A DNA stretch of 39,751 bases from Epibacterium ulvae (lineage in GTDB: Bacteria > Pseudomonadota > Alphaproteobacteria > Rhodobacterales > Rhodobacteraceae), in the NCBI RefSeq assembly GCF_018678075.1, contig NZ_JAHHIR010000010.1:1-39751 (forward strand), written 5' to 3'. A program made the position numbers and the translations under genes. Each line of letters opens with the position of its first letter. Position 1 is the first letter of the stretch. The notes below the pieces were generated by a model. It did no database searches, was not told the DNA's origin, and worked only from the letters and a program-made list of their open reading frames with translations. Below, one piece after another: positions 7,063-34,992 of the stretch.

Positions 7063-7172
7063 CACGCGGCCCCCTTCCGTCTTGGGCAAGACGGGATCAC
7101 TGGGTCGTACTCTCCTTGCATCTTGTTTATTTCGGCGTTTTGCAAAGGGCGGGCGCCGTTGATCGCGTTCAT
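7062..7172 (-). CDS. small hypothetical ORF leading into polymerase
   Basis: A 36-codon frame (MNAINGARPLQNAE...) links its neighbours by overlaps on both sides. Its ATG at 7172 overlaps the upstream gene's TGA (ATGA), and its TGA overlaps the polymerase ATG (TGATG). The AAGGAG-like site for the polymerase lies inside it. Overlap chaining suggests it is translated, perhaps only to couple polymerase translation. No motif is recognised. Confidence 0.45.
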   Translation of the reverse strand: MNAINGARPLQNAEINKMQGEYDPVIPSCPRRKGAA

Positions 7173-7387
7173 AGCTGCGCCCCCGCGAGTTTGAGTTCCA
7201 GCGCGTCGGCATCGCGGATCACACCCTCTAACAGCGTCTGGATCGCGGCATGGATGCTGTAAATGCGGTCTTCCCGCACGTCTTCGGGGTAGTCGTTGTG
7301 TATGGTCGTGGCGGATTTGACCAGCCCGTCCAGGACCAATAGGTCCGACATCAGTTTAGACGGCAAAGGGATATCGTGAACGCTCAT
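7169..7387 (-). CDS. hypothetical protein
   Basis: 72 residues from ATG 7387 (MSVHDIPLPSKL), with ACGGAGG 7 bases upstream, which decides this start; the same frame stays open to 7954 but runs across non-coding DNA. The protein is mostly helical and acidic (YPEDVREDRIYSIHAAIQTLLEGVI) with no family I recognise. Its stop overlaps the next small ORF (ATGA). It is the first gene downstream of the minus-strand terminator at 7525-7548, so it either has its own promoter in 7390-7520 or needs readthrough. Confidence 0.7.
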   Translation of the reverse strand: MSVHDIPLPSKLMSDLLVLDGLVKSATTIHNDYPEDVREDRIYSIHAAIQTLLEGVIRDADALELKLAGAQL

Positions 7388-7428
7388 AGCGAACCTCCGT
7401 GTGAACAGTTTCGATAACTGACCACGGA

Positions 7429-7583
7429 GACGCCAATCTCTGGTGGCCAGATGACGCAAGATTGGCGTTACCGCCACACGGAGCGGCGCACCCGAGGGTG
7501 CTCCTGCGCATCTGACCGTAATAGAAAAACCCGCATAGAAAATGCGGGCGTCAAAGCGCCGTATGACAGACAGGACGCCAATC
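7429..7583. repeat. three copies of GACGCCAATC around a promoter region
   Basis: The motif (G)ACGCCAATC(T) occurs at 7429-7439 (plus), as a perfect 10-bp inverted copy at 7459-7468 (AGATTGGCGT), and again at 7574-7583 (plus). The first two form an inverted repeat with a 19-bp spacer. They lie in the gap between a leftward gene start (7387) and the rightward gene at 7652. This looks like binding sites for a regulator; the function is inferred. Confidence 0.5.
7525..7548 (-). terminator. rho-independent terminator inside the leftward cluster
   Basis: Read on the minus strand: stem CCCGCAT / ATGCGGG with a 5-nt loop, followed by TTTTT (7529-7525). It would stop leftward transcripts coming from 11777-7958 before they reach the polymerase and integrase genes. 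Confidence 0.7.
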
Positions 7584-7586
7584 CCG

Positions 7587-7607
7587 ACAACAGTTTTTTG
7601 CTGTTGT
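7587..7607. promoter_or_regulatory. small palindrome upstream of the 7652 gene
   Basis: ACAACAG and CTGTTGT form a perfect 7-bp inverted repeat around TTTTTTG, 45 bp before the rightward gene at 7652. It could be an operator or a weak hairpin. No convincing -35/-10 pair was identified beside it. Confidence 0.3.
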
Positions 7608-7651
7608 AAAGAAATATTGCCCCAATAACGGGAATCTGTCAACTCTGACGC

Positions 7652-7951
7652 ATGAATTTTGGTGAAGCATTTGATAGCGCACTCAAGCAAACTTGGGCGG
7701 GCGTAAAGGGTCTCGTCGGCCTCGCGTTGGTTTTGGGCGGTTGCGGATTGCTCGGCCTTTCCGTCTATAGTTGGGCGGTGACCGGCGTGTGGGGCGCACC
7801 TTCTGTCTACGACTTTGTTGTCGCCTTTTTCGGCGTCGACGCCCTGTCGGACTGGGTCGGGATAGCGAACGCCGCCGAGGGAACTGAAATGTGGACAGCT
7901 TGCTTTATCCTTGCGGGGGTGTGGGGGTTGATTTTTTCGAAGCTCGACTAA
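7652..7951 (+). CDS. small membrane protein on the opposite strand (moron candidate)
   Basis: A 99-residue protein with two predicted membrane segments: about 17-46 (GLVGLALVLGGCGLLGLSVY) and about 81-96 (MWTACFILAGVWGLIF), joined by a loop of about 35 residues. It is the only plus-strand gene within 10 kb of leftward early genes and ends 6 bp from the convergent gene 7958-8206. The upstream 265 bp hold repeats and a palindrome but no clear Shine-Dalgarno sequence. Independent, opposite-strand membrane genes in prophages are often lysogenic-conversion or superinfection-exclusion genes. That role is only inferred from position and topology. Confidence 0.6.
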   Translation: MNFGEAFDSALKQTWAGVKGLVGLALVLGGCGLLGLSVYSWAVTGVWGAPSVYDFVVAFFGVDALSDWVGIANAAEGTEMWTACFILAGVWGLIFSKLD

Positions 7952-7957
7952 CATCGT

Positions 7958-14211: not shown

Positions 14212-16443
14212 ATGGCCGAACATTTCCTGCGAAGCCACGGGCGGCGCTTGCTCGAACACGGCTACCCCATCGTTCCGATCAAGCGCGGGTCCAAGTTTCC
14301 CCGGGGCCTGAAAGATTGGCAACACACACGGGCGGACGGGACCAAACTCGGTCGCTGGCTGTCCAACGGGTTCGCCGACGGCGGCGTCGGTGTCCTTTGC
14401 CGCGATTTTCCCGGTGTGGATCTTGACGTCAGGGACGCGGGGATCACTCAGAAACTTGTGGAATGGTGCGAAGAACACATCGGCCCCACCGTTCAGAGGG
14501 TCGGAGAGGCCCCCAAGATATTGCTGGCGTATAGAACAGACACGCCGTTTGCCAAGGTGGCCTCGGCCAAATATGAAGACTTCTTCGGTATCGAGCACAA
14601 GGTGGAGATCCTTGGCGACGGCCAACAATACGTCGCTTTCGCGGACCACCCAGATACTGGGCGCCCATACGAATGGGTGACCAAACAGTCCCTGGCCGAT
14701 GTACCAGCCGATCGATTGCCGTTGATCACCGAGGCGCAAGCGCGGGATCTGATCGCCTACTTTGAAAGCATTGTCCCGGAAGACTGGATGCTCGTTGACG
14801 AAGCCCCGAGTACAAAGGGGGTGGACGTCACGTTGCCGGAAGTCGACCGCGTCCTGTCCAATTCGAAGCCGAAGGTTCAGATCTCATCGACAAAACTGCG
14901 GTCTGCATTGGCCGTTCTGGACGCGGATATGCGCATGCATGACTGGGTTCGCATCGGGATGGCGCTGTATCACCAATTTGACGGCAGCGACGAAGGTTTC
15001 GAGCTGTGGGACGAATGGTCGTCAGACGGGATAAAATACGAGCCCGACAAGATGCGCGCGAGATGGCGTTCGTTTGAGGCGGACTTGCGCAGCCAGAACC
15101 CGGTGACGGTGGCCACGATCTTGCAGCTGGCCAAAGCCGAACGGCGGGAGAACGACCAGAAGAAAGACCCCTTGGACCGGTTCATAGACCGGTACGTGTT
15201 TATCGAGCAAGGCAATATGGTTTGCGATCTGCAGAAGCCCCCGCACTGCGCAGTGTCCAAACTGGATGAGTTCCGCAACGCAACGGCCAATGTCCGGCAC
15301 GAAGTCCCTGCCCCGACCCAGGCGGATCCGGCAAAGACCAAATGGCAACCGGTCCATACGAACTGGATGATCGACCGGGACCGCAAAAGTGCGCAAGGCG
15401 TGCGCTATGACCCCAATTCGCCCGGCTTCTTCGAAGACACGCACCATAAGGGCCTGTGGTGGGTGAACGAGTTCTACATGCCGGAGTTCAAAGAGGTCGC
15501 CGCGGACTTTTCCGTGTTCGAGGACCACATGGCGTACCTGATCCCCGATGAACGAGAGCGCGAATGGTTCCTGGATTGGATCGCGTTCAACATCCAACGG
15601 CCTGGCACCCGGTGTAAGGTGGCACCTCTCCACGTCTCCGTCGCTCACGGTACGGGGCGCGGCTGGTTGGTGGAGTTGATGGGGAGGCTATTGGGCCAGT
15701 GGAACGTCACAAAGACAAAGATGTCCACGTTGGCCGGCGAAGGGAGCGCGGGCAACTATCAAGACTATCTCGACAAGTCGCTGCTGTGCGCCATTGAAGA
15801 AGTACGGGAACAGGAAAAGCGGTACGGTGTGTCCGACAAGATCCGGGACTACATCACCGAAAACCACTTGGAAGTGAACGTCAAATTCGGCGGGAAGAAG
15901 ACCCAGGCCGTCTACACGAACTTTTTCTTTATGTCGAACCACCCCGACGCGATGGTGTTGTCCGAGGAAGACCGGCGCGTGAACGTGTTGTCGGGTCCTG
16001 AAAAGGCGCGAGACAGAGCTTACTATCTGCGGCTCTATGACTGGCTCGAAACGGATGGCGTGGCCGCGCTCTACGCCGCTCTGATGGCGCGGGACCTGTC
16101 CCAATTCGATTGGCAGCATTCGATGCGTACCAAGGGGCGGTCTCGCATGATCGAGAACAACAGGAGCGAGACAGAAACCCTGTTCTTTGCGCTGCTGGAC
16201 GACCTTCCGTCCCCCGCGATGACCTTTTCCCAGATTGTGCGCGAAATGACGGCCCTGTCCGAAAAGGACAGCTTCGACACGGACATCGACCAAGGGCAGC
16301 TGCGGAAACTCCTGCAACATAAATCGACGCAGGCCAAACAGATGAAGGTGGACGGTAAACCTGTGCGCCCCTGGATTTTGGACCGACGTGTGAAAAACGA
16401 CACCGCCGCGATCAAGGAAAGTGTCAAAAAATGCAAAGTGTAA
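14212..16443 (+). CDS. primase-helicase: Prim-Pol, PriCT-2 and DUF5906 SF3 helicase domains
   Basis: 743 residues. Residues 1-190 are a bifunctional primase/polymerase (Prim-Pol) domain: PIVPIKRGSKFP, the catalytic Asp70-x-Asp72 in GVDLDVRD, and VEILGDGQQYVAFA. Residues about 227-290 match PriCT-2 (LRSALAVLDADMRMHDWVRI). Residues about 440-640 are a DUF5906 superfamily 3 helicase: Walker A AHGTGRGW (479-485), where the usual Lys is Arg, and Walker B LLCAIEE (524-530), followed by a C-terminal winged-helix-like region. It would prime and unwind phage DNA for the family A polymerase encoded on the leftward operon. The AT-rich repeat region immediately after it may be its origin. Confidence 0.9.
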   Translation: MAEHFLRSHGRRLLEHGYPIVPIKRGSKFPRGLKDWQHTRADGTKLGRWLSNGFADGGVGVLCRDFPGVDLDVRDAGITQKLVEWCEEHIGPTVQRVGEAPKILLAYRTDTPFAKVASAKYEDFFGIEHKVEILGDGQQYVAFADHPDTGRPYEWVTKQSLADVPADRLPLITEAQARDLIAYFESIVPEDWMLVDEAPSTKGVDVTLPEVDRVLSNSKPKVQISSTKLRSALAVLDADMRMHDWVRIGMALYHQFDGSDEGFELWDEWSSDGIKYEPDKMRARWRSFEADLRSQNPVTVATILQLAKAERRENDQKKDPLDRFIDRYVFIEQGNMVCDLQKPPHCAVSKLDEFRNATANVRHEVPAPTQADPAKTKWQPVHTNWMIDRDRKSAQGVRYDPNSPGFFEDTHHKGLWWVNEFYMPEFKEVAADFSVFEDHMAYLIPDEREREWFLDWIAFNIQRPGTRCKVAPLHVSVAHGTGRGWLVELMGRLLGQWNVTKTKMSTLAGEGSAGNYQDYLDKSLLCAIEEVREQEKRYGVSDKIRDYITENHLEVNVKFGGKKTQAVYTNFFFMSNHPDAMVLSEEDRRVNVLSGPEKARDRAYYLRLYDWLETDGVAALYAALMARDLSQFDWQHSMRTKGRSRMIENNRSETETLFFALLDDLPSPAMTFSQIVREMTALSEKDSFDTDIDQGQLRKLLQHKSTQAKQMKVDGKPVRPWILDRRVKNDTAAIKESVKKCKV

Positions 16444-16830
16444 GTTTTTCGACAGTCTCCGGTCACACTGGTAATGCAAGGGTAGGGCTACGAACGACCG
16501 CTGTCCTACCGATCAAGTACATGTTTTTATTGACTAAACATATAACGGTAACTCTGGTAACACTGATAAATAGTTTTAGAGTAGTACTATATATTTCTCT
16601 GTATACAGCCCCCCGTCTGTGCGCCCAGCCCTATAGGGCACCGATACGAACCGTTACCGGTGCGACCTTTGGCATTAACGCGCTGAAACCAAAGGGAAAA
16701 CGCCGTCCCACAGGCGAGGAACAAGCGTTACCTTTGGGGCCTATGAGCGTTACCACCTCTTCTAAGTCATTGAAATCAAACGAAACCAGCCCCGCGAACC
16801 ACTCTGGCGGGTCAAATGGAGGTACGGGGG
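16444..16830. other. AT-rich intergenic region with GGTAAC repeats, candidate origin
   Basis: This stretch follows the primase-helicase gene and is visibly richer in A and T than the rest (16520-16610). GGTAAC occurs at 16547-16552 and 16556-16561 on the plus strand, and its complement GTTACC at 16653-16658, 16727-16732 and 16749-16754: five exact copies in about 210 bp, in two opposed groups. A near copy (CTGGTAAT) lies at 16469-16476. A TTGACT hexamer is at 16530-16535. Reading frames across it (for example 16431-16838) look non-coding; a 31-codon frame at 16743-16838 (MSVTTSSKSL) cannot be excluded. Confidence 0.45.
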
Positions 16831-17019
16831 ATGGGTAAATCACGAGGCTCGCCACCACCTCCCCCGAACCCGTCGCGGCCCCCAGTCGAGGAACGGGAGA
16901 GCCCCATTCCGAAGTTTTGGCGCTTTAGATGTGGCGGTTGTGGGGCCCCTTACCGACCTGGCGACGAACATTGTGAATATTGCGAAAGCCGACCTGCTTC
17001 CCGAAAAAAGGAGACGTGA
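16831..17019 (+). CDS. small zinc-ribbon protein
   Basis: 62 residues from ATG 16831 (MGKSRGSPPP), start supported by GGAGG upstream; the frame also has an ATG at 16816 inside that site. The N-terminus is Pro/Ser-rich and basic. The C-terminal 30 residues, FRCGGCGAPYRPGDEHCEYC, have two CxxC pairs, a zinc ribbon. Such small ribbons bind nucleic acid or RNA polymerase. It lies directly upstream of the NusG-like gene (4-bp gap), so the two may act together in transcription. Confidence 0.65.
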   Translation: MGKSRGSPPPPPNPSRPPVEERESPIPKFWRFRCGGCGAPYRPGDEHCEYCESRPASRKKET

Positions 17020-17023
17020 GACA

Positions 17024-17680
17024 ATGAACGCACACGACACACAGTGGTTCGCAGTGAGGACCAAGCCACCCGTAAACTCGGGCCGCATTCGTACGATTGT
17101 GGGCGGGGATTACGAAACCTATGTCGGGCGCGGCGGTGTGCGGAAACAGCGGTTGATCCCGGGCACTGGTGAAGCGGCGTTCGTGATCGAGGAGTTGATC
17201 CACAAAGCCGGGTTCCGAACATTTCTTCCCACTCAAAAAGTTTTCCGGCGGAAGTCCCGTTACGGGCTTGCCAAGCGCCCCATGGAATACCCGAAACTGC
17301 CCGGATGGTGCTTTGTCGAAATGCCGACGCGGTTTAACACTGCAACGGGCCGTGATGAGCCGTTTGGCTGGCATCGCCTCCTGCGCCTCGATGTCGTGGA
17401 GAGCGTCGTTTGTGTCGACGGACACCCCTGCCCGATCCACCCGTTCGTGATCGAGGACATGGCGAGGCGTTGGAACAACCCACCCCCCGGACACCACCAA
17501 CACCAGCCAACGCACCACGAGTTCGACATTGGCGACACGGCGGTCGTTTCGCGGGGCACGCTTGCGGGGTTCGCGGTGGACGTGACCGACATACGGGACG
17601 CTAACGCGGTGGTGATCCTGGACTTGCTCGGCAAACAAACCGAACACGAGATCCCCATGATGCATCTGGAGGCGGCGTAA
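17024..17680 (+). CDS. phage NusG-like protein, probable antiterminator
   Basis: 218 residues from ATG 17024 (MNAHDTQWFAVRTKPP), with GGAG upstream. The N-terminal domain shows the NusG pattern: QWFAVRTKP at the start, EELIHKAGFRTFLPTQK, the basic RRKSRYGLAKRP segment, LPGWCFVEMP (compare the GYvFV strand of NusG/RfaH), and DVVESVVCVDGHPCPI. After a His/Pro-rich linker (PPPGHHQHQPTHH) comes a KOW domain: FDIGDTAVVSRGTLAGFAVD. NusG paralogues bind RNA polymerase and stop it pausing or terminating. The gene is followed by a strong terminator (17904-17940) and then all late genes, so it probably licenses late transcription. Confidence 0.85.
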   Translation: MNAHDTQWFAVRTKPPVNSGRIRTIVGGDYETYVGRGGVRKQRLIPGTGEAAFVIEELIHKAGFRTFLPTQKVFRRKSRYGLAKRPMEYPKLPGWCFVEMPTRFNTATGRDEPFGWHRLLRLDVVESVVCVDGHPCPIHPFVIEDMARRWNNPPPGHHQHQPTHHEFDIGDTAVVSRGTLAGFAVDVTDIRDANAVVILDLLGKQTEHEIPMMHLEAA

Positions 17681-17903
17681 TGGGGGTGGTGCGCAGAGCG
17701 ATCGCACGAGAGAACACATCGGGGTTGATTAGTACACTCGGGGGGTGCCACCCATAGGGCGCTCCCCAAGATGTTGTGGAGAGGGCCACTGCCAATAGAC
17801 GCATGATGCGGTGCGGCAACCCCTAGATACTGGCGGACCCCCACGGAAACCCAGTGTTACACACTGCGAAGCTATGGACACTCCTTCCCTCGACTGGTTC
17901 CTA
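17681..17903 (+). promoter_or_regulatory. leader region ahead of late-operon terminator
   Basis: No convincing gene. A 25-codon frame (MGVVRRAIAREN) starts at 17680 with TAATG overlap to the NusG-like gene and ends at 17757. The stretch has several G-runs (17681-17690, 17739-17747) and lies between an antiterminator-type gene and a terminator, so it could hold the recruiting site for antitermination. This is inference from position. Confidence 0.3.
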
Positions 17904-17940
17904 CCCCAACAGCGCTGTCGTAACGCTGTTGGGGGTCTTT
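17904..17940 (+). terminator. strong rho-independent terminator before terminase genes
   Basis: CCCCAACAGCG (17904-17914) pairs perfectly with CGCTGTTGGGG (17924-17934) around a 9-nt loop, followed by GTCTTT and further T-rich sequence. The late operon starts 33 bp downstream with no obvious promoter in between. Confidence 0.85.
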
Positions 17941-17972
17941 GCATTTGATAGATAGAATTTAGGATCAAACAG

Positions 17973-18479
17973 ATGGCCGACAAGAAACCCGGTCGACCGT
18001 CCGAATATGACAAGGCGGGCGGCGACGACAAAGTTCCGGCAATCGCCAAAAAGATGTGTTTGCTTGGCGCGATAGAGGAAGATCTCGCCGCCGCATTCGG
18101 GGTCTCCCGCCGCACGATCACCAACTGGGAAAAGCAGCACGAGCTGTTCCGGGCAGCGATACAGGACGGGCGCGTCTACGCGGATATGGAGGTCGCTCAG
18201 AGCTTGTTTGACCGGGCGACCGGGGCCGAATGGACCGAACAACAGGCCATCAAGGTCAAAAAAGTTGAATACGAAAACGGCAAAAAGCTTCGGGAAATCG
18301 AAGAAGTCGAGATCGTGGAAGTTCAACGAAGTGCGGCACCCGACACCGTGGCCGGGATTTTCTGGTTGAAGAACCGCCGGGCGCAAAACTGGCGGGATCG
18401 GCAAGAGACCAAGATCTCCGCTGACGGAGATCTTGCGAAGGTGCTGGCCGCGATTGATGGGCAAACAAAGTCCGTTTAA
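17973..18479 (+). CDS. terminase small subunit
   Basis: 168 residues. The N-terminal GRPSEYDK motif, then LLGAIEEDLAAAFGVSRRTI (HTH that recognises the packaging site), the WEKQHELFRAAIQDGR segment, LFDRATGAEW, and PDTVAGIFWLKNRRAQNWRD are all characteristic of phage small terminases. The C-terminal part would contact the large subunit. Start ATG 17973 has AGGA 8 bases upstream. It overlaps the large-subunit gene by 23 bp. Confidence 0.92.
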   Translation: MADKKPGRPSEYDKAGGDDKVPAIAKKMCLLGAIEEDLAAAFGVSRRTITNWEKQHELFRAAIQDGRVYADMEVAQSLFDRATGAEWTEQQAIKVKKVEYENGKKLREIEEVEIVEVQRSAAPDTVAGIFWLKNRRAQNWRDRQETKISADGDLAKVLAAIDGQTKSV

Positions 18480-19950
18480 CGAAGCTGTCGCCAAGTTCGG
18501 GGATCGTCGGTGGAGGCTCAACAACCTCTATTGGATCAAGGACAAGGACGGCAATGTCGTAAAGTTCCAGCTCAATCCGGCACAAGAACAGTTGCTGGAC
18601 GAGCTGCACACGCTGAACATCATCCTGAAAGCCCGCCAATTGGGCTTTTCGACGTTCATCCTGATCTTGGCGTTGGACTGCTGCCTGTTCAACAGCCATT
18701 TCGAAGCGGGCTTGATCGCGGATACGTTGGTCAACGCCCAAAACCTGTTGGACCGGATCAAGTTCGCTTACGAGCGACTGCCGGGCGACCTGAAAAACCT
18801 CCGCCCGATCACCGCGTCGAATTCCACCCAGGTCGAGTTCGGCAATGGGTCGAGTGTCGAGGTCGGCGTGTCGCTTCGATCCGGCACCAAGAATTTCTTG
18901 CACATCTCCGAATACGGGAAGGTGTGCGCGAAGGCACCGGATCGGGCCAAAGAGATCAAGTCGGGCGCGCTGAACACCGTCGCGCCGGGCCAACTCGTAT
19001 TCATCGAGAGCACCGCCGAGGGCCGTAGCGGTGACTTTTTCGACAAATGCGAGACCAGCCAGAAGTTGCGCGACATGGGCGCTGCTTTGGGGATCATGGA
19101 GTACAAGTTCCATTTCTTCCCCTGGTTTCTGGATCAGAGATATCGCCTTTCGGACCCCGTCAAACTGACGCCGGACGAGGAAAAATACTTCGACGAATTG
19201 CTGGCCGAACACGGCATCGATTTGGACGAGGAACAGGAGCGGTGGTACGCGGCCAAGTGGCGTGAACAGGGCGATGAAATGTGCCGGGAGTTCCCGTCCG
19301 TGCCCGAAGAAGCGTTCAAGGCGGCCAAAGACGGCGCGTACTGGGCCAAATGGATCGCGGGGCTGCGCCAGCGCGGTGAAATCCGCGACTTCCCGTTCGA
19401 GACCCGTACGGTGGTCAACACGTTCTGGGACCTGGGCGTCGATGACAGCACGGCGATCTGGCTACACCAGATCATCGCGGGCAAGCACCGGTTTGTCGGT
19501 TACATCGAAGACAGTGGCGAGGGTATCGCCTACTATTTGGACCGCCTCGAAAAGTGGCGGGCGCAGCACGGCGCGACATTCGGTCAGCATTACGGGCCGC
19601 ACGATATCGAACACCGGATGCAGGGCGAGAACGCCGAAAGCGTCAAGGACGTCGCCGCTCGGTTGGGCTTCCACTTCAACGTCGTGGAGCGCACCAAAGA
19701 CAAATACGGCAGTATCCAGCGTGTGCGCACGATCCTGCCACAGTGCCAGTTTTCGACCCCCGCTGTTGAAGCGGGCCTCAACCACGCGGAGCAGTACAGC
19801 CGCGATTGGGACGAAAAATACGGGGTGTGGAAATCGCAACCCCGACACGATGAACACAGTCACGGTGCCGATGCGCTGATGACTTTCGCTGACGGCTGGC
19901 AATCCCCGCCGAAAAAGACGCCGAAACAAAAAGCAATCCGAGTGGTCTGA
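18457..19950 (+). CDS. terminase large subunit
   Basis: 497 residues from ATG 18457 (MGKQSPFNEAVAKF). The packaging ATPase domain has the diverged Walker A ARQLGFSTF (about 59-67), a Walker B-type strand ending FLHISEYGK, and the coupling motif FIESTAEG. The nuclease domain has WDLGVDDSTAIWL, YGPHDIEHR and the final SHGADALM, carrying the metal-binding acids. The length and motif order match headful-packaging terminases. It drives DNA into the procapsid through the portal encoded next. Confidence 0.93.
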   Translation: MGKQSPFNEAVAKFGDRRWRLNNLYWIKDKDGNVVKFQLNPAQEQLLDELHTLNIILKARQLGFSTFILILALDCCLFNSHFEAGLIADTLVNAQNLLDRIKFAYERLPGDLKNLRPITASNSTQVEFGNGSSVEVGVSLRSGTKNFLHISEYGKVCAKAPDRAKEIKSGALNTVAPGQLVFIESTAEGRSGDFFDKCETSQKLRDMGAALGIMEYKFHFFPWFLDQRYRLSDPVKLTPDEEKYFDELLAEHGIDLDEEQERWYAAKWREQGDEMCREFPSVPEEAFKAAKDGAYWAKWIAGLRQRGEIRDFPFETRTVVNTFWDLGVDDSTAIWLHQIIAGKHRFVGYIEDSGEGIAYYLDRLEKWRAQHGATFGQHYGPHDIEHRMQGENAESVKDVAARLGFHFNVVERTKDKYGSIQRVRTILPQCQFSTPAVEAGLNHAEQYSRDWDEKYGVWKSQPRHDEHSHGADALMTFADGWQSPPKKTPKQKAIRVV

Positions 19951-19951
19951 T

Positions 19952-22078
19952 TTGGACAAAACTGACGACTATATGAGCGACGTTGTGCGGCTGGTCGACC
20001 AGTGCGAACGGCACCTGGACCAACAAGCCGGGGATCGTGAACGCGCGCTTGAGTATTACAACGGGGAGATCCGGGACCTACCTGTCGAGGCAGACGAAGA
20101 CGGCGTCCCCCTTCGTTCTTCCGTGGTGTCCCGAGACTTCCGCGATACCGTCAAAAAGATCATGCCGTCAGTGATGCGGGCAATTTTGTCGAATGACCAG
20201 GTTGTCGAGTACGAGCCGAAGACACCGGAGAGCGAAGAAAGCGCAGAACAGGCTACGAAATACGTTAACGCGGTGGTCGTACCAGAGTGTGGGGCGGAAA
20301 AAGCGATCCACGACGCGATCCACGACGCGTTCACCGTCAAGACCGGCATCCTCAAATGGGCGGCGTATAAAAACCGCCGCTCAGAGACCACCGAACACTC
20401 CAACCTCTCCGAAGAGGCCATGTTGGGTCTGATCGGAGAAGACGACGAACTGATCGACCACGAAGAGGCCGAAGAGACCGACCAGGAAGTTCTGGCGCTG
20501 ATCCCCAACGCGCGCCGCCACAGTTTCAAACTAAAGCGCGCGGTGGACCGGATTGACGTGCGCTTGGAGGCCGTCCCACGGGGATCTTTCCTGATCCACC
20601 CTGACGCCGAGACGATCGAAGACAGTCCGATTGTTGGTGAGCGACAAGAGATCAGCCGATCCGAACTGGTGTCTCGTGGGTATGATCGGGGCAAAGTTGA
20701 TAAACTGTCCGCGTACCGCAAACGCGCCGATGACGACACCGACGACCACGCCCGCAAGGGCGACGATTACAGCTACGCCGACGACCACAAGCCGACTGCG
20801 CTTGAACTCGTTCAGATTTACGAGGTTTACGCGCTCATCGACCGCGATGGGGACGGCATCGCGGAGATGTACAAGATCGTCTACGGCGAGAGCGGCGAGC
20901 GGGACACCACCGGCGGGGGCGAAGGGCAAAGCGCGCGGTCCCGGATCGTCCTGGAAGACGAGGCAGTGAGCGAAGCACCCTATGCAGAGGTCATCTGCGA
21001 GCGGGACGCCCACCAATTCGAAGGCCACTCGATTTTCGAGGACACCGAGGACATCCAACGGATCAAAACGTCGCTGACGCGCGGGGTTTTGGATAACGTC
21101 TATTGGCAAAACAACCCGTCAGGTGAAGTTGATCTGAATGGCGTCGAAAACCCGGACGCCGTTTTCAACCCGCGTTTTGGCCAAATGATCAGGCGCAAAG
21201 GCGGTAACAACGGCGTTCCGGTGGTCCAGTTGCATCAGATCCCGTTTTACGCTGCCGAAGCTTTCGCGATGCTCCCTCACTGGGACGAAGTGGTCAAAGA
21301 TCGCACAGGCATCACCGACGCCTCTGGGGGCCTCGACCCAGAACAGATCGCCAATGTGAACAGCAGTGTGGCGCAGCTGGCGGCGGACAGCGGCACGGCC
21401 CAGGCAGAGATGATCATCCGAACACTAGCCCGTGGAGGGATCGAAAAGGCTTTCCGGGGCCTTTTGAAGCTCGTTGTTGCCCACCACGATCAGGAACGCA
21501 CGATAAAAGTTAGCGGGGCGTGGGTCAGCTACAACCCCAAATCGTGGGACGCGGATCTCGATTGCACGGTCAACGTCGGTCTGGGCGCGGGTTCTCGGGA
21601 GCGGGATCTCTCGGTTTTGCAGACTATTCTGGGTCTACAGCGGGAAGTGATCGCAGCGTTCGGCCCCGACAATCCGTTTGTGAAACCGACACAGCTATAC
21701 CGCACGCTGGCCAAGATCGCGGAAACAGCCGGTTTCCCGAGCGCGGACCCGTACTTCACCGCGCCGAACGACGAAGAGGTCAAGGCCAAGCTCGCGGCCC
21801 AGCAAGAACAGCCGGACCCACAGCGGCAGAAGATCGAAATGCAAATGCAGCTCGAACAGGCGAAGGCGCAAGCGCGCCAGCAAGTCGAACAGGCTCAAAT
21901 GCAGGCGGACCTTGCTGTCAAAGACGCGGAACGGCGCGCACAGATGGAAATCGAAACCATGAAAGCGCAGCTCGCTTACATGCAGCACCAACAAAAGCTC
22001 GAACTCGAATACGCCAAGGCTGGGCTGGCGCCCCCTGGTGCGGCTTCTGCTGGGCTGCCGGAGCAAGTGTTTGGCTGA
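19952..22078 (+). CDS. portal protein, P22-like
   Basis: About 708 residues. The sequence begins DKTDDYMSDVVRLVDQ and includes SSVVSRDFRDTVKKIMPSVM, VPRGSFLIHPDAETIEDSP and GRQ-like core segments typical of P22-type portals, then QLAADSGTAQAEMIIRTLAR and a C-terminal tail of about 120 residues rich in Gln and Ala (QMQLEQAKAQARQQVEQAQM) that would form the long helical barrel extending into the capsid. The start is uncertain: TTG 19952, 1 bp after the terminase stop, or ATG 19973 (MSDVVRL); neither has a strong Shine-Dalgarno. A P22-type portal supports a podovirus-like virion. Confidence 0.88.
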   Translation: MDKTDDYMSDVVRLVDQCERHLDQQAGDRERALEYYNGEIRDLPVEADEDGVPLRSSVVSRDFRDTVKKIMPSVMRAILSNDQVVEYEPKTPESEESAEQATKYVNAVVVPECGAEKAIHDAIHDAFTVKTGILKWAAYKNRRSETTEHSNLSEEAMLGLIGEDDELIDHEEAEETDQEVLALIPNARRHSFKLKRAVDRIDVRLEAVPRGSFLIHPDAETIEDSPIVGERQEISRSELVSRGYDRGKVDKLSAYRKRADDDTDDHARKGDDYSYADDHKPTALELVQIYEVYALIDRDGDGIAEMYKIVYGESGERDTTGGGEGQSARSRIVLEDEAVSEAPYAEVICERDAHQFEGHSIFEDTEDIQRIKTSLTRGVLDNVYWQNNPSGEVDLNGVENPDAVFNPRFGQMIRRKGGNNGVPVVQLHQIPFYAAEAFAMLPHWDEVVKDRTGITDASGGLDPEQIANVNSSVAQLAADSGTAQAEMIIRTLARGGIEKAFRGLLKLVVAHHDQERTIKVSGAWVSYNPKSWDADLDCTVNVGLGAGSRERDLSVLQTILGLQREVIAAFGPDNPFVKPTQLYRTLAKIAETAGFPSADPYFTAPNDEEVKAKLAAQQEQPDPQRQKIEMQMQLEQAKAQARQQVEQAQMQADLAVKDAERRAQMEIETMKAQLAYMQHQQKLELEYAKAGLAPPGAASAGLPEQVFG

Positions 22079-34970: not shown

Positions 34971-34992
34971 AGCCCGCACGCGGGCTCTTTTG
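34971..34992 (+). terminator. rho-independent terminator between holin and endolysin
   Basis: AGCCCGC (34971-34977) and GCGGGCT (34980-34986) with a 2-nt apparent loop (4 nt if the closing pair opens), then CTTTTGG. It lies 15 bp before the endolysin start. Confidence 0.6.

What the first reader, a model, noticed from the sequence alone, without database searches (positions are those of the whole stretch)
17024..17972. Phage NusG paralogue paired with a strong terminator in front of the late operon
A NusG-N plus KOW protein is encoded directly before a perfect 11-bp-stem terminator, and then 21 kb of late genes begin without an obvious promoter. This suggests a NusG-like processive antiterminator as late switch, a design different from lambda N/Q. 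The zinc-ribbon protein just upstream (16831-17019) may be a partner. Further terminators inside the late operon (24311, 34971) would be bypassed the same way.
Basis: partly seen in the sequence, partly recalled or inferred. Interest (0 to 1): 0.75.

Follow-up and report, generated by a model that had tools for sequence, protein, structure and literature searches.

The report
NusG-based late-gene switch in phages
Viruses of marine bacteria carry their own version of a universal transcription helper, NusG, beside a conserved RNA leader and a stop signal that lie in front of the virus assembly genes, which looks like a previously undescribed way of switching on late virus genes.

Summary
In detail: window 17024-17680 encodes a NusG paralogue, followed by a perfect 11-bp hairpin at 17904-17934 (weak U-tract) and the late genes from 17973. 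Comparison goes further. The protein belongs to a clade of prophage NusG paralogues from Rhodobacterales, apart from housekeeping NusG and chromosomal RfaH-like proteins. Terminase or portal genes follow on the same strand in 24 of 25 non-redundant loci with at least 3 kb downstream, in two different packaging modules. In relatives NusG is followed by a conserved promoter, leader and terminator (terminator in 27 of 32 loci), the layout of lambda Q-pR'-leader-tR'. The commonest leader is an RNA with strong covariation (20 of 54 pairs; 0 of 500 shuffles) and no Rfam match. Leader type follows the NusG tree (2 changes, the minimum) but not the TerL tree (8). Best reading: a late antitermination switch, Q-like in layout, built from a NusG paralogue and its leader. 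Function is inferred. The window has its own leader type (one other copy found), no recognised promoter and a mediocre terminator. The zinc-ribbon partner is not supported.

The parts
17024..17680 (+). NusG paralogue (NGN plus KOW, 218 aa), proposed late antiterminator
   Evidence: Pfam, PHROG and NCBIfam scans, model and fold search, phage clade in tree
17776..17877 (+). Conserved noncoding leader block, proposed loading element
   Evidence: 80 of 102 aligned positions identical to L003 5350-5453, against 57.6% for the neighbouring NusG gene and 37.9% and 44.0% for the flanking noncoding DNA; no other copy found
17904..17934 (+). Leader terminator hairpin, perfect 11-bp stem, 9-nt loop; tail GTCTTTGC is a weak U-tract
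   Evidence: fails the strict rule
17973..18479 (+). Small terminase, first late gene
   Evidence: PHROG 309, 4.7e-38
18433..19950 (+). Large terminase
   Evidence: PHROG 2, 1.1e-21
19952..22078 (+). SU10-type portal
   Evidence: Pfam SU10_portal 585.9 bits
24310..24329 (+). Terminator-like hairpin inside the late region that a processive antiterminator would have to pass
34971..34986 (+). Second terminator-like hairpin inside the late region
   Evidence: sequence printed
16831..17019 (+). Small zinc-ribbon protein; proposed partner, not supported
   Evidence: flagged in 1 of 34 loci

Best explanation
The window carries a prophage late-gene switch. A phage NusG paralogue is made with the early genes. 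RNA polymerase transcribing the region after the gene makes a short leader and tends to stop at the leader terminator. When the paralogue is present it is recruited to the elongating polymerase through the leader element (RNA or non-template DNA), stays bound through its NGN domain, and lets polymerase pass this terminator and later ones, so that terminase, head and tail genes are expressed. SHOWN by computation: NusG fold and separate clade, synteny, the promoter-leader-terminator cassette of relatives, covariation in the type A leader, coupling of leader type to NusG clade, and a conserved noncoding block in the window. INFERRED: that the protein acts on its own leader, that the effect is antitermination, that it is processive, and that it turns on late genes. 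In the window the promoter that starts the leader is not identified.
For: NusG fold and clade. Late genes follow in 24 of 25 non-redundant loci with at least 3 kb downstream, in two packaging modules; 21 of 22 if loci fetched by the promoter motif are left out. Conserved promoter in 21 of 32 loci and conserved terminator in 25 of 32, plus two with leader and terminator 1.9-3.9 kb away; without the six motif-fetched loci 15 of 26 and 21 of 26. Strict terminator rule met in 20 of 30 loci against 4 of 90 shuffles and 5 of 53 other stretches. The promoter motif alone matched 29 contigs, 18 with the cassette, 17 of them with NusG upstream on the same strand. Type A leader: 20 of 54 pairs with double changes, shuffled mean 5.8, 0 of 500 as high. 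Leader type needs 2 changes on the NusG tree and 8 on the TerL tree. Window block 78.4% identical to L003 beside a gene at 57.6%. LoaP precedent for NusG paralogue, leader hairpin and leader terminator (PMC12691694, passages).
Against: No experiment. The window's hairpin has a weak U-tract and fails the strict rule; no promoter is recognised there; its leader folds no better than shuffles (z 0.58) and barely resembles type A (5.9 bits, E 0.77, fourth in the window). Types A, B and C share the promoter and terminator but match model R1 mainly at the terminator, so a single recognition element is not shown. Physical closeness explains part of the coupling of NusG and leader. L128 and L131 lack the cassette, and L003 has about 1.1 kb between gene and terminator.
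Confidence: 0.68

Rival explanations
1. RfaH-like polarity suppressor: the paralogue rides on polymerase through the late operon, blocks Rho and couples ribosomes, recruited by an ops-like DNA pause, and does not act on the leader terminator itself.
For: In the tree the nearest outside group is chromosomal RfaH-like proteins; RfaH NGN is the best fold match; the best NCBIfam hit is RfaH, though far under its cut-off.
Against: It does not explain a conserved terminator right after the leader or the covarying leader RNA.
Confidence: 0.14
2. The hairpin only ends the early operon; late genes have their own promoter beyond it, and NusG does something else, such as adjusting host transcription.
For: The AT-rich stretch at 17940-17965 could hide a promoter of another type; the scan covers one type.
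Against: The order NusG, leader, terminator, late genes recurs in two packaging modules, and in relatives the conserved promoter lies before the terminator, also where other DNA has been inserted (L105, L086).
Confidence: 0.08
3. The conserved DNA is something other than a loading site: a cos or pac site in the window type, or a small RNA acting in trans in the relatives, with NusG merely linked.
For: The window block lies directly upstream of the small terminase, where cos sites often lie (recalled); it folds no better than shuffles.
Against: In type A relatives the same place holds an RNA with covariation, more than 900 nt upstream of TerS, and its type follows NusG and not TerL.
Confidence: 0.1

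Closest known systems
LoaP (NusG paralogue; dfn and mln operons)
   Same: NusG paralogue, promoter-proximal leader with an RNA hairpin, leader terminator, long operon behind it (PMC12691694, passages).
   Different: Bacterial antibiotic operons of Gram-positives; a small UNCG-type hairpin. Here phage late genes and longer leaders of several types; binding not shown.
Lambda Q / pR' / tR' late switch (recalled)
   Same: Order of parts: regulator gene, late promoter, short leader RNA, terminator, late genes.
   Different: Q is not a NusG-like protein and loads at the promoter and a sigma-dependent pause (PMC7171158, abstract start in a search listing). Here the effector is a NusG paralogue and the leader RNA covaries.
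RfaH and the wider RfaH-like group
   Same: NGN plus KOW paralogue of NusG; nearest group in the tree. [quoted passage not shown]
   Different: Recruited by ops DNA; serves polysaccharide and virulence operons (abstract starts). The phage clade is separate, with an insert after the first strand.
Lambda N/nut and HK022 put (recalled)
   Same: Phage antitermination directed by nascent RNA.
   Different: put needs no phage protein; N is a small unrelated protein; both serve early genes.

Membership tests
NusG/Spt5 family | NGN and KOW domains | tested here: met
   Pfam NusG just over the cut-off; profile match to solved NusG 2lq8, 8.2e-14; fold matches for both domains
Housekeeping NusG | the genome's main NusG; NusG equivalog score | tested here: not met
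   13.2 bits against a cut-off of 135.7; a separate NusG in the genome; separate clade
RfaH | RfaH equivalog score | tested here: not met
   26.6 bits against 144.5
RfaH | alpha-helical autoinhibited KOW that refolds | tested here: inconclusive
   the model shows a beta-barrel KOW; one static prediction does not test switching
RfaH | ops element in the target operon | not tested
   no ops search was run
LoaP-type leader control | leader RNA structure and leader terminator in front of the operon | tested here: met
   in relatives: covariation in type A and terminator; in the window only a conserved block and a weak-tailed hairpin
LoaP-type leader control | specific binding of the protein to the RNA | not testable with these tools
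   needs binding assays
Lambda Q-type late switch | regulator, late promoter, leader, terminator, late genes in this order | tested here: met
   in relatives; in the window all but the promoter
Lambda Q-type late switch | effector is a Q-family protein | tested here: not met
   the Pfam and PHROG scans of the protein list only NusG and PHROG 6386
Processive antiterminators | readthrough of successive terminators | not testable with these tools
   needs transcription assays

The most novel reading that the evidence does not exclude
Temperate phages of Rhodobacterales use a NusG paralogue in the place of lambda Q. Several distinct leader RNAs (types A, B, C and the window type) are cognate loading sites for different clades of the paralogue, so that protein and RNA form co-evolved, possibly orthogonal antitermination modules that move between packaging modules. 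It would be a second class of NusG-like protein with specific RNA recognition besides LoaP, and an independent invention of the Q switch.
Probability: 0.45. Interest if true: 0.8.

Novelty: new variant of a known kind. Interest (0 to 1): 0.66.

Why it matters
It would add a late-gene switch built on a universally conserved transcription factor family to the known phage solutions. Several matched protein and RNA types would make it directly testable how a NusG paralogue gains its target specificity; [quoted passage not shown] It also marks the late promoter and leader in a group of marine prophages and gives a covarying RNA without an Rfam match.

Tried and rejected
Zinc ribbon as partner: flagged upstream of NusG only in the window among 34 loci listed, of which four are near-copies and two (L079, L107) hold too little upstream sequence; rejected.

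Known RNA family for the leader: for window 17600-18000 Rfam gives two chance microRNA hits at E 1.6 and 1.9; for five relatives one hit, away from the leader.

The window leader as a copy of the type A RNA: model R1 gives 5.9 bits at 17786-17805, E 0.77, behind three other places in the window; not claimed. A genome search with R1 found 0 of 394 with a loose first look and no positive control; uninformative.

More copies of the window leader: two pattern scans found only L003's contig. The 17-base core matched five viral contigs; one is L003's and four I judge chance. A blastn search of 394 genomes gave the window itself and a 24-base match that I take as chance.

The first terminator test was too loose: 27 of 30 observed, 52 of 90 shuffled. 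It was replaced by the strict test, which the window fails.

NusG homologues in GenBank phages by tblastn: none for P0001 (E 1e-3) or the L064 protein (E 1e-2). A single-sequence protein search found only the query. A class-wide search found only the own genome, 1 of 385, at E 1e-14 and with at most 7 candidates scored per genome. A genome-contig scan with the two-sequence alignment found nothing. Seven weaker homologues (L066-L072) lie in chromosomal surroundings that I read by eye as partly polysaccharide genes, without a family search; they served as a comparison group.

In one search the window row was cut to 37 residues by my mistake; replace it. L130 was labelled type B from its place in the NusG tree, before its leader was read; one search then showed a B-type leader. 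L086 and L130 were typed by eye.

Paper searches list no report of a phage NusG paralogue as late antiterminator. Passages seen: PMC7819879, PMC7593976, PMC12691694, PMC13015549, PMC8224337. Other papers were seen only as listings or abstract starts. Most subscription papers are not in the library.

Full report

THE HAIRPIN. The 11-bp stem at 17904-17934 is exact (-19.8 kcal/mol). Its tail GTCTTTGC has 4 T in 8, so it is a good stem with a mediocre U-tract and fails the strict rule used below. No sigma70-like promoter is listed nearby.

THE LEADER BLOCK OF THE WINDOW. L003 is a related prophage, of Leisingera sp. NJS204 by its protein's record. It has a NusG homologue (51% identity), a TerL 84% identical, and between them a block identical to window 17776-17877 at 80 of 102 positions (78.4%). 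The NusG gene beside it is 57.6% identical (best 102-nt stretch 64.7%) and the flanking noncoding DNA 37.9% and 44.0%. A terminator-like hairpin follows in both, with unrelated stems. So a noncoding element and a hairpin are kept here while the gene has diverged more. With two sequences its structure cannot be settled, and it folds no better than shuffles.

THE FAMILY. Scans gave 18 viral loci and 12 genome loci. In a tree of 43 proteins the 20 phage proteins form one clade (SH-aLRT 99), 7 chromosomal RfaH-like proteins another (90) and 16 host NusG a third (99); the method was quick, and the tool warns of long branches meeting at the root. Of 394 genomes of the family 10 match P0001 at 1e-5: the own one, two further prophages and seven RfaH-like.

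SYNTENY. Of 34 loci, 4 are near-copies of others. Of the 30 left, 25 have at least 3 kb downstream, and 24 of these match TerS, TerL or portal on the same strand: two (window, L003) with the SU10-type module, 22 with the lambda-type one, L131 only by a piece of portal. Without loci fetched by the promoter motif it is 21 of 22. The exception, L086, ends 1.9 kb after its leader.

THE CASSETTE OF RELATIVES. In lambda-type phages NusG is followed by a conserved promoter, TTGTTAA-N-TTGAC-N-TTAA, in 21 of 32 loci, with a variant in L127. The stretch from the -10 box to the end of the terminator is 169-197 nt in those 21 loci. The terminator (CCCGGC..., then T-rich) is found in 25 of 32. L086 and L130 have the same leader and terminator about 3.9 and 1.9 kb from their NusG, which makes 27 of 32. 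The window, L003, L126 (near a contig end), L128 and L131 do not have it. Six of the 32 loci were fetched by the promoter motif itself; without them the figures are 15 of 26 for the promoter and 21 of 26 for the terminator. About a dozen loci have a second strong terminator some 90-150 nt further. A strict test (hairpin at -15 kcal/mol or better, at least 5 T in 8, within 450 nt after NusG) is met in 20 of 30 loci, 4 of 90 shuffles and 5 of 53 other stretches of the same loci; in a few loci the best hairpin is not the conserved one.

A SEARCH FROM THE OTHER SIDE. The promoter motif alone matched 29 viral contigs. 18 hold the cassette, and 17 of these have NusG upstream on the same strand: 15 in the fetched locus, L119 and L105 on the whole contig. 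The eighteenth, L095, has only about 2.4 kb of contig upstream. The other 11 gave no NusG hit in the fetched locus and were not studied. Eleven of the 18 were already known from the protein scan; 7 are new, 6 of them with NusG, and some of those are near-copies of each other.

LEADER RNA. The leaders fall into three types. Type A (12 sequences): 54 pairs in 8 helices, 97.8% of cells paired, 20 pairs with double changes against a shuffled mean of 5.8 (0 of 500 as high); slid structures pair 28-43% of cells. The structure came from the same alignment, which favours it over slid versions, and the shuffles do not keep relatedness. Types B (6 sequences, 9 of 51 pairs with double changes) and C (7 sequences, 4 of 38) give weaker signs and had no control. 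Rfam has no leader match in five loci. Model R1 of type A matches B and C leaders mainly at the terminator.

COUPLING OF PROTEIN AND LEADER. On the NusG tree the three types need 2 changes, the least possible (23 labelled rows, 24 labelled rows with L086, L130 and the protein of L105, whose leaders lie about 2-4 kb away). On the TerL tree of 23 rows they need 8 (quick method; shuffled mean 10.9, 3 of 200 as low). So the leader travels with its NusG while packaging genes are exchanged. Closeness explains part of this, less so for the three distant cases. Type A is not a clade but encloses B.

MECHANISM. The simplest reading is a late switch laid out as in lambda Q (recalled), with a NusG paralogue as effector and the leader as its loading site, as the dfn hairpin is for LoaP (PMC12691694, passages). 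Shown: anatomy, conservation, covariation, coupling. Inferred: recruitment, antitermination, processivity, timing. For the window the promoter of the leader is unknown; transcription running on from the early genes through NusG is as possible as a separate start.

NOVELTY. The paper searches and the passages seen in five papers show no such system; PMC7593976 notes rfaH-like genes on prophages. I class it as a new variant of a known kind: NusG-paralogue antitermination applied to phage late genes, with leader RNAs of its own.

Noticed in passing
window 7439-7523 (-): A match to C4 antisense RNA (RF01695, 54.8 bits, gathering 45), inside an unassigned open frame at 7169-7954 (-).
   Followed up: no
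window 16440-16840: Noncoding stretch after the primase gene with short repeats (GGTAAC and GTTACC); L003 3000-3380 has a different set (TGTCATAC). Possibly replication iterons or operators.
   Followed up: partly
L003 4661-4723: A 20-codon hydrophobic open frame (MYDLLVLLLMLIQILLQIYL) inside the long leader of L003, of the look of a type I toxin peptide.
   Followed up: no
type A loci such as L077, promoter just after NusG: The late promoter of type A loci is spanned by an inverted repeat TGTTAAGGG...CCCTTAACA, perhaps an operator. Similar TTGTTAAGT...CTTAACA motifs occur in contigs without a NusG hit (L094, L102, L114).
   Followed up: no
L074-L130, gene directly upstream of NusG: A conserved gene of about 195 aa (MDSAEQANGEKRVKGVLIDPL...) precedes NusG in most lambda-type loci listed; function not looked up; not seen upstream of NusG in the window.
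   Followed up: no
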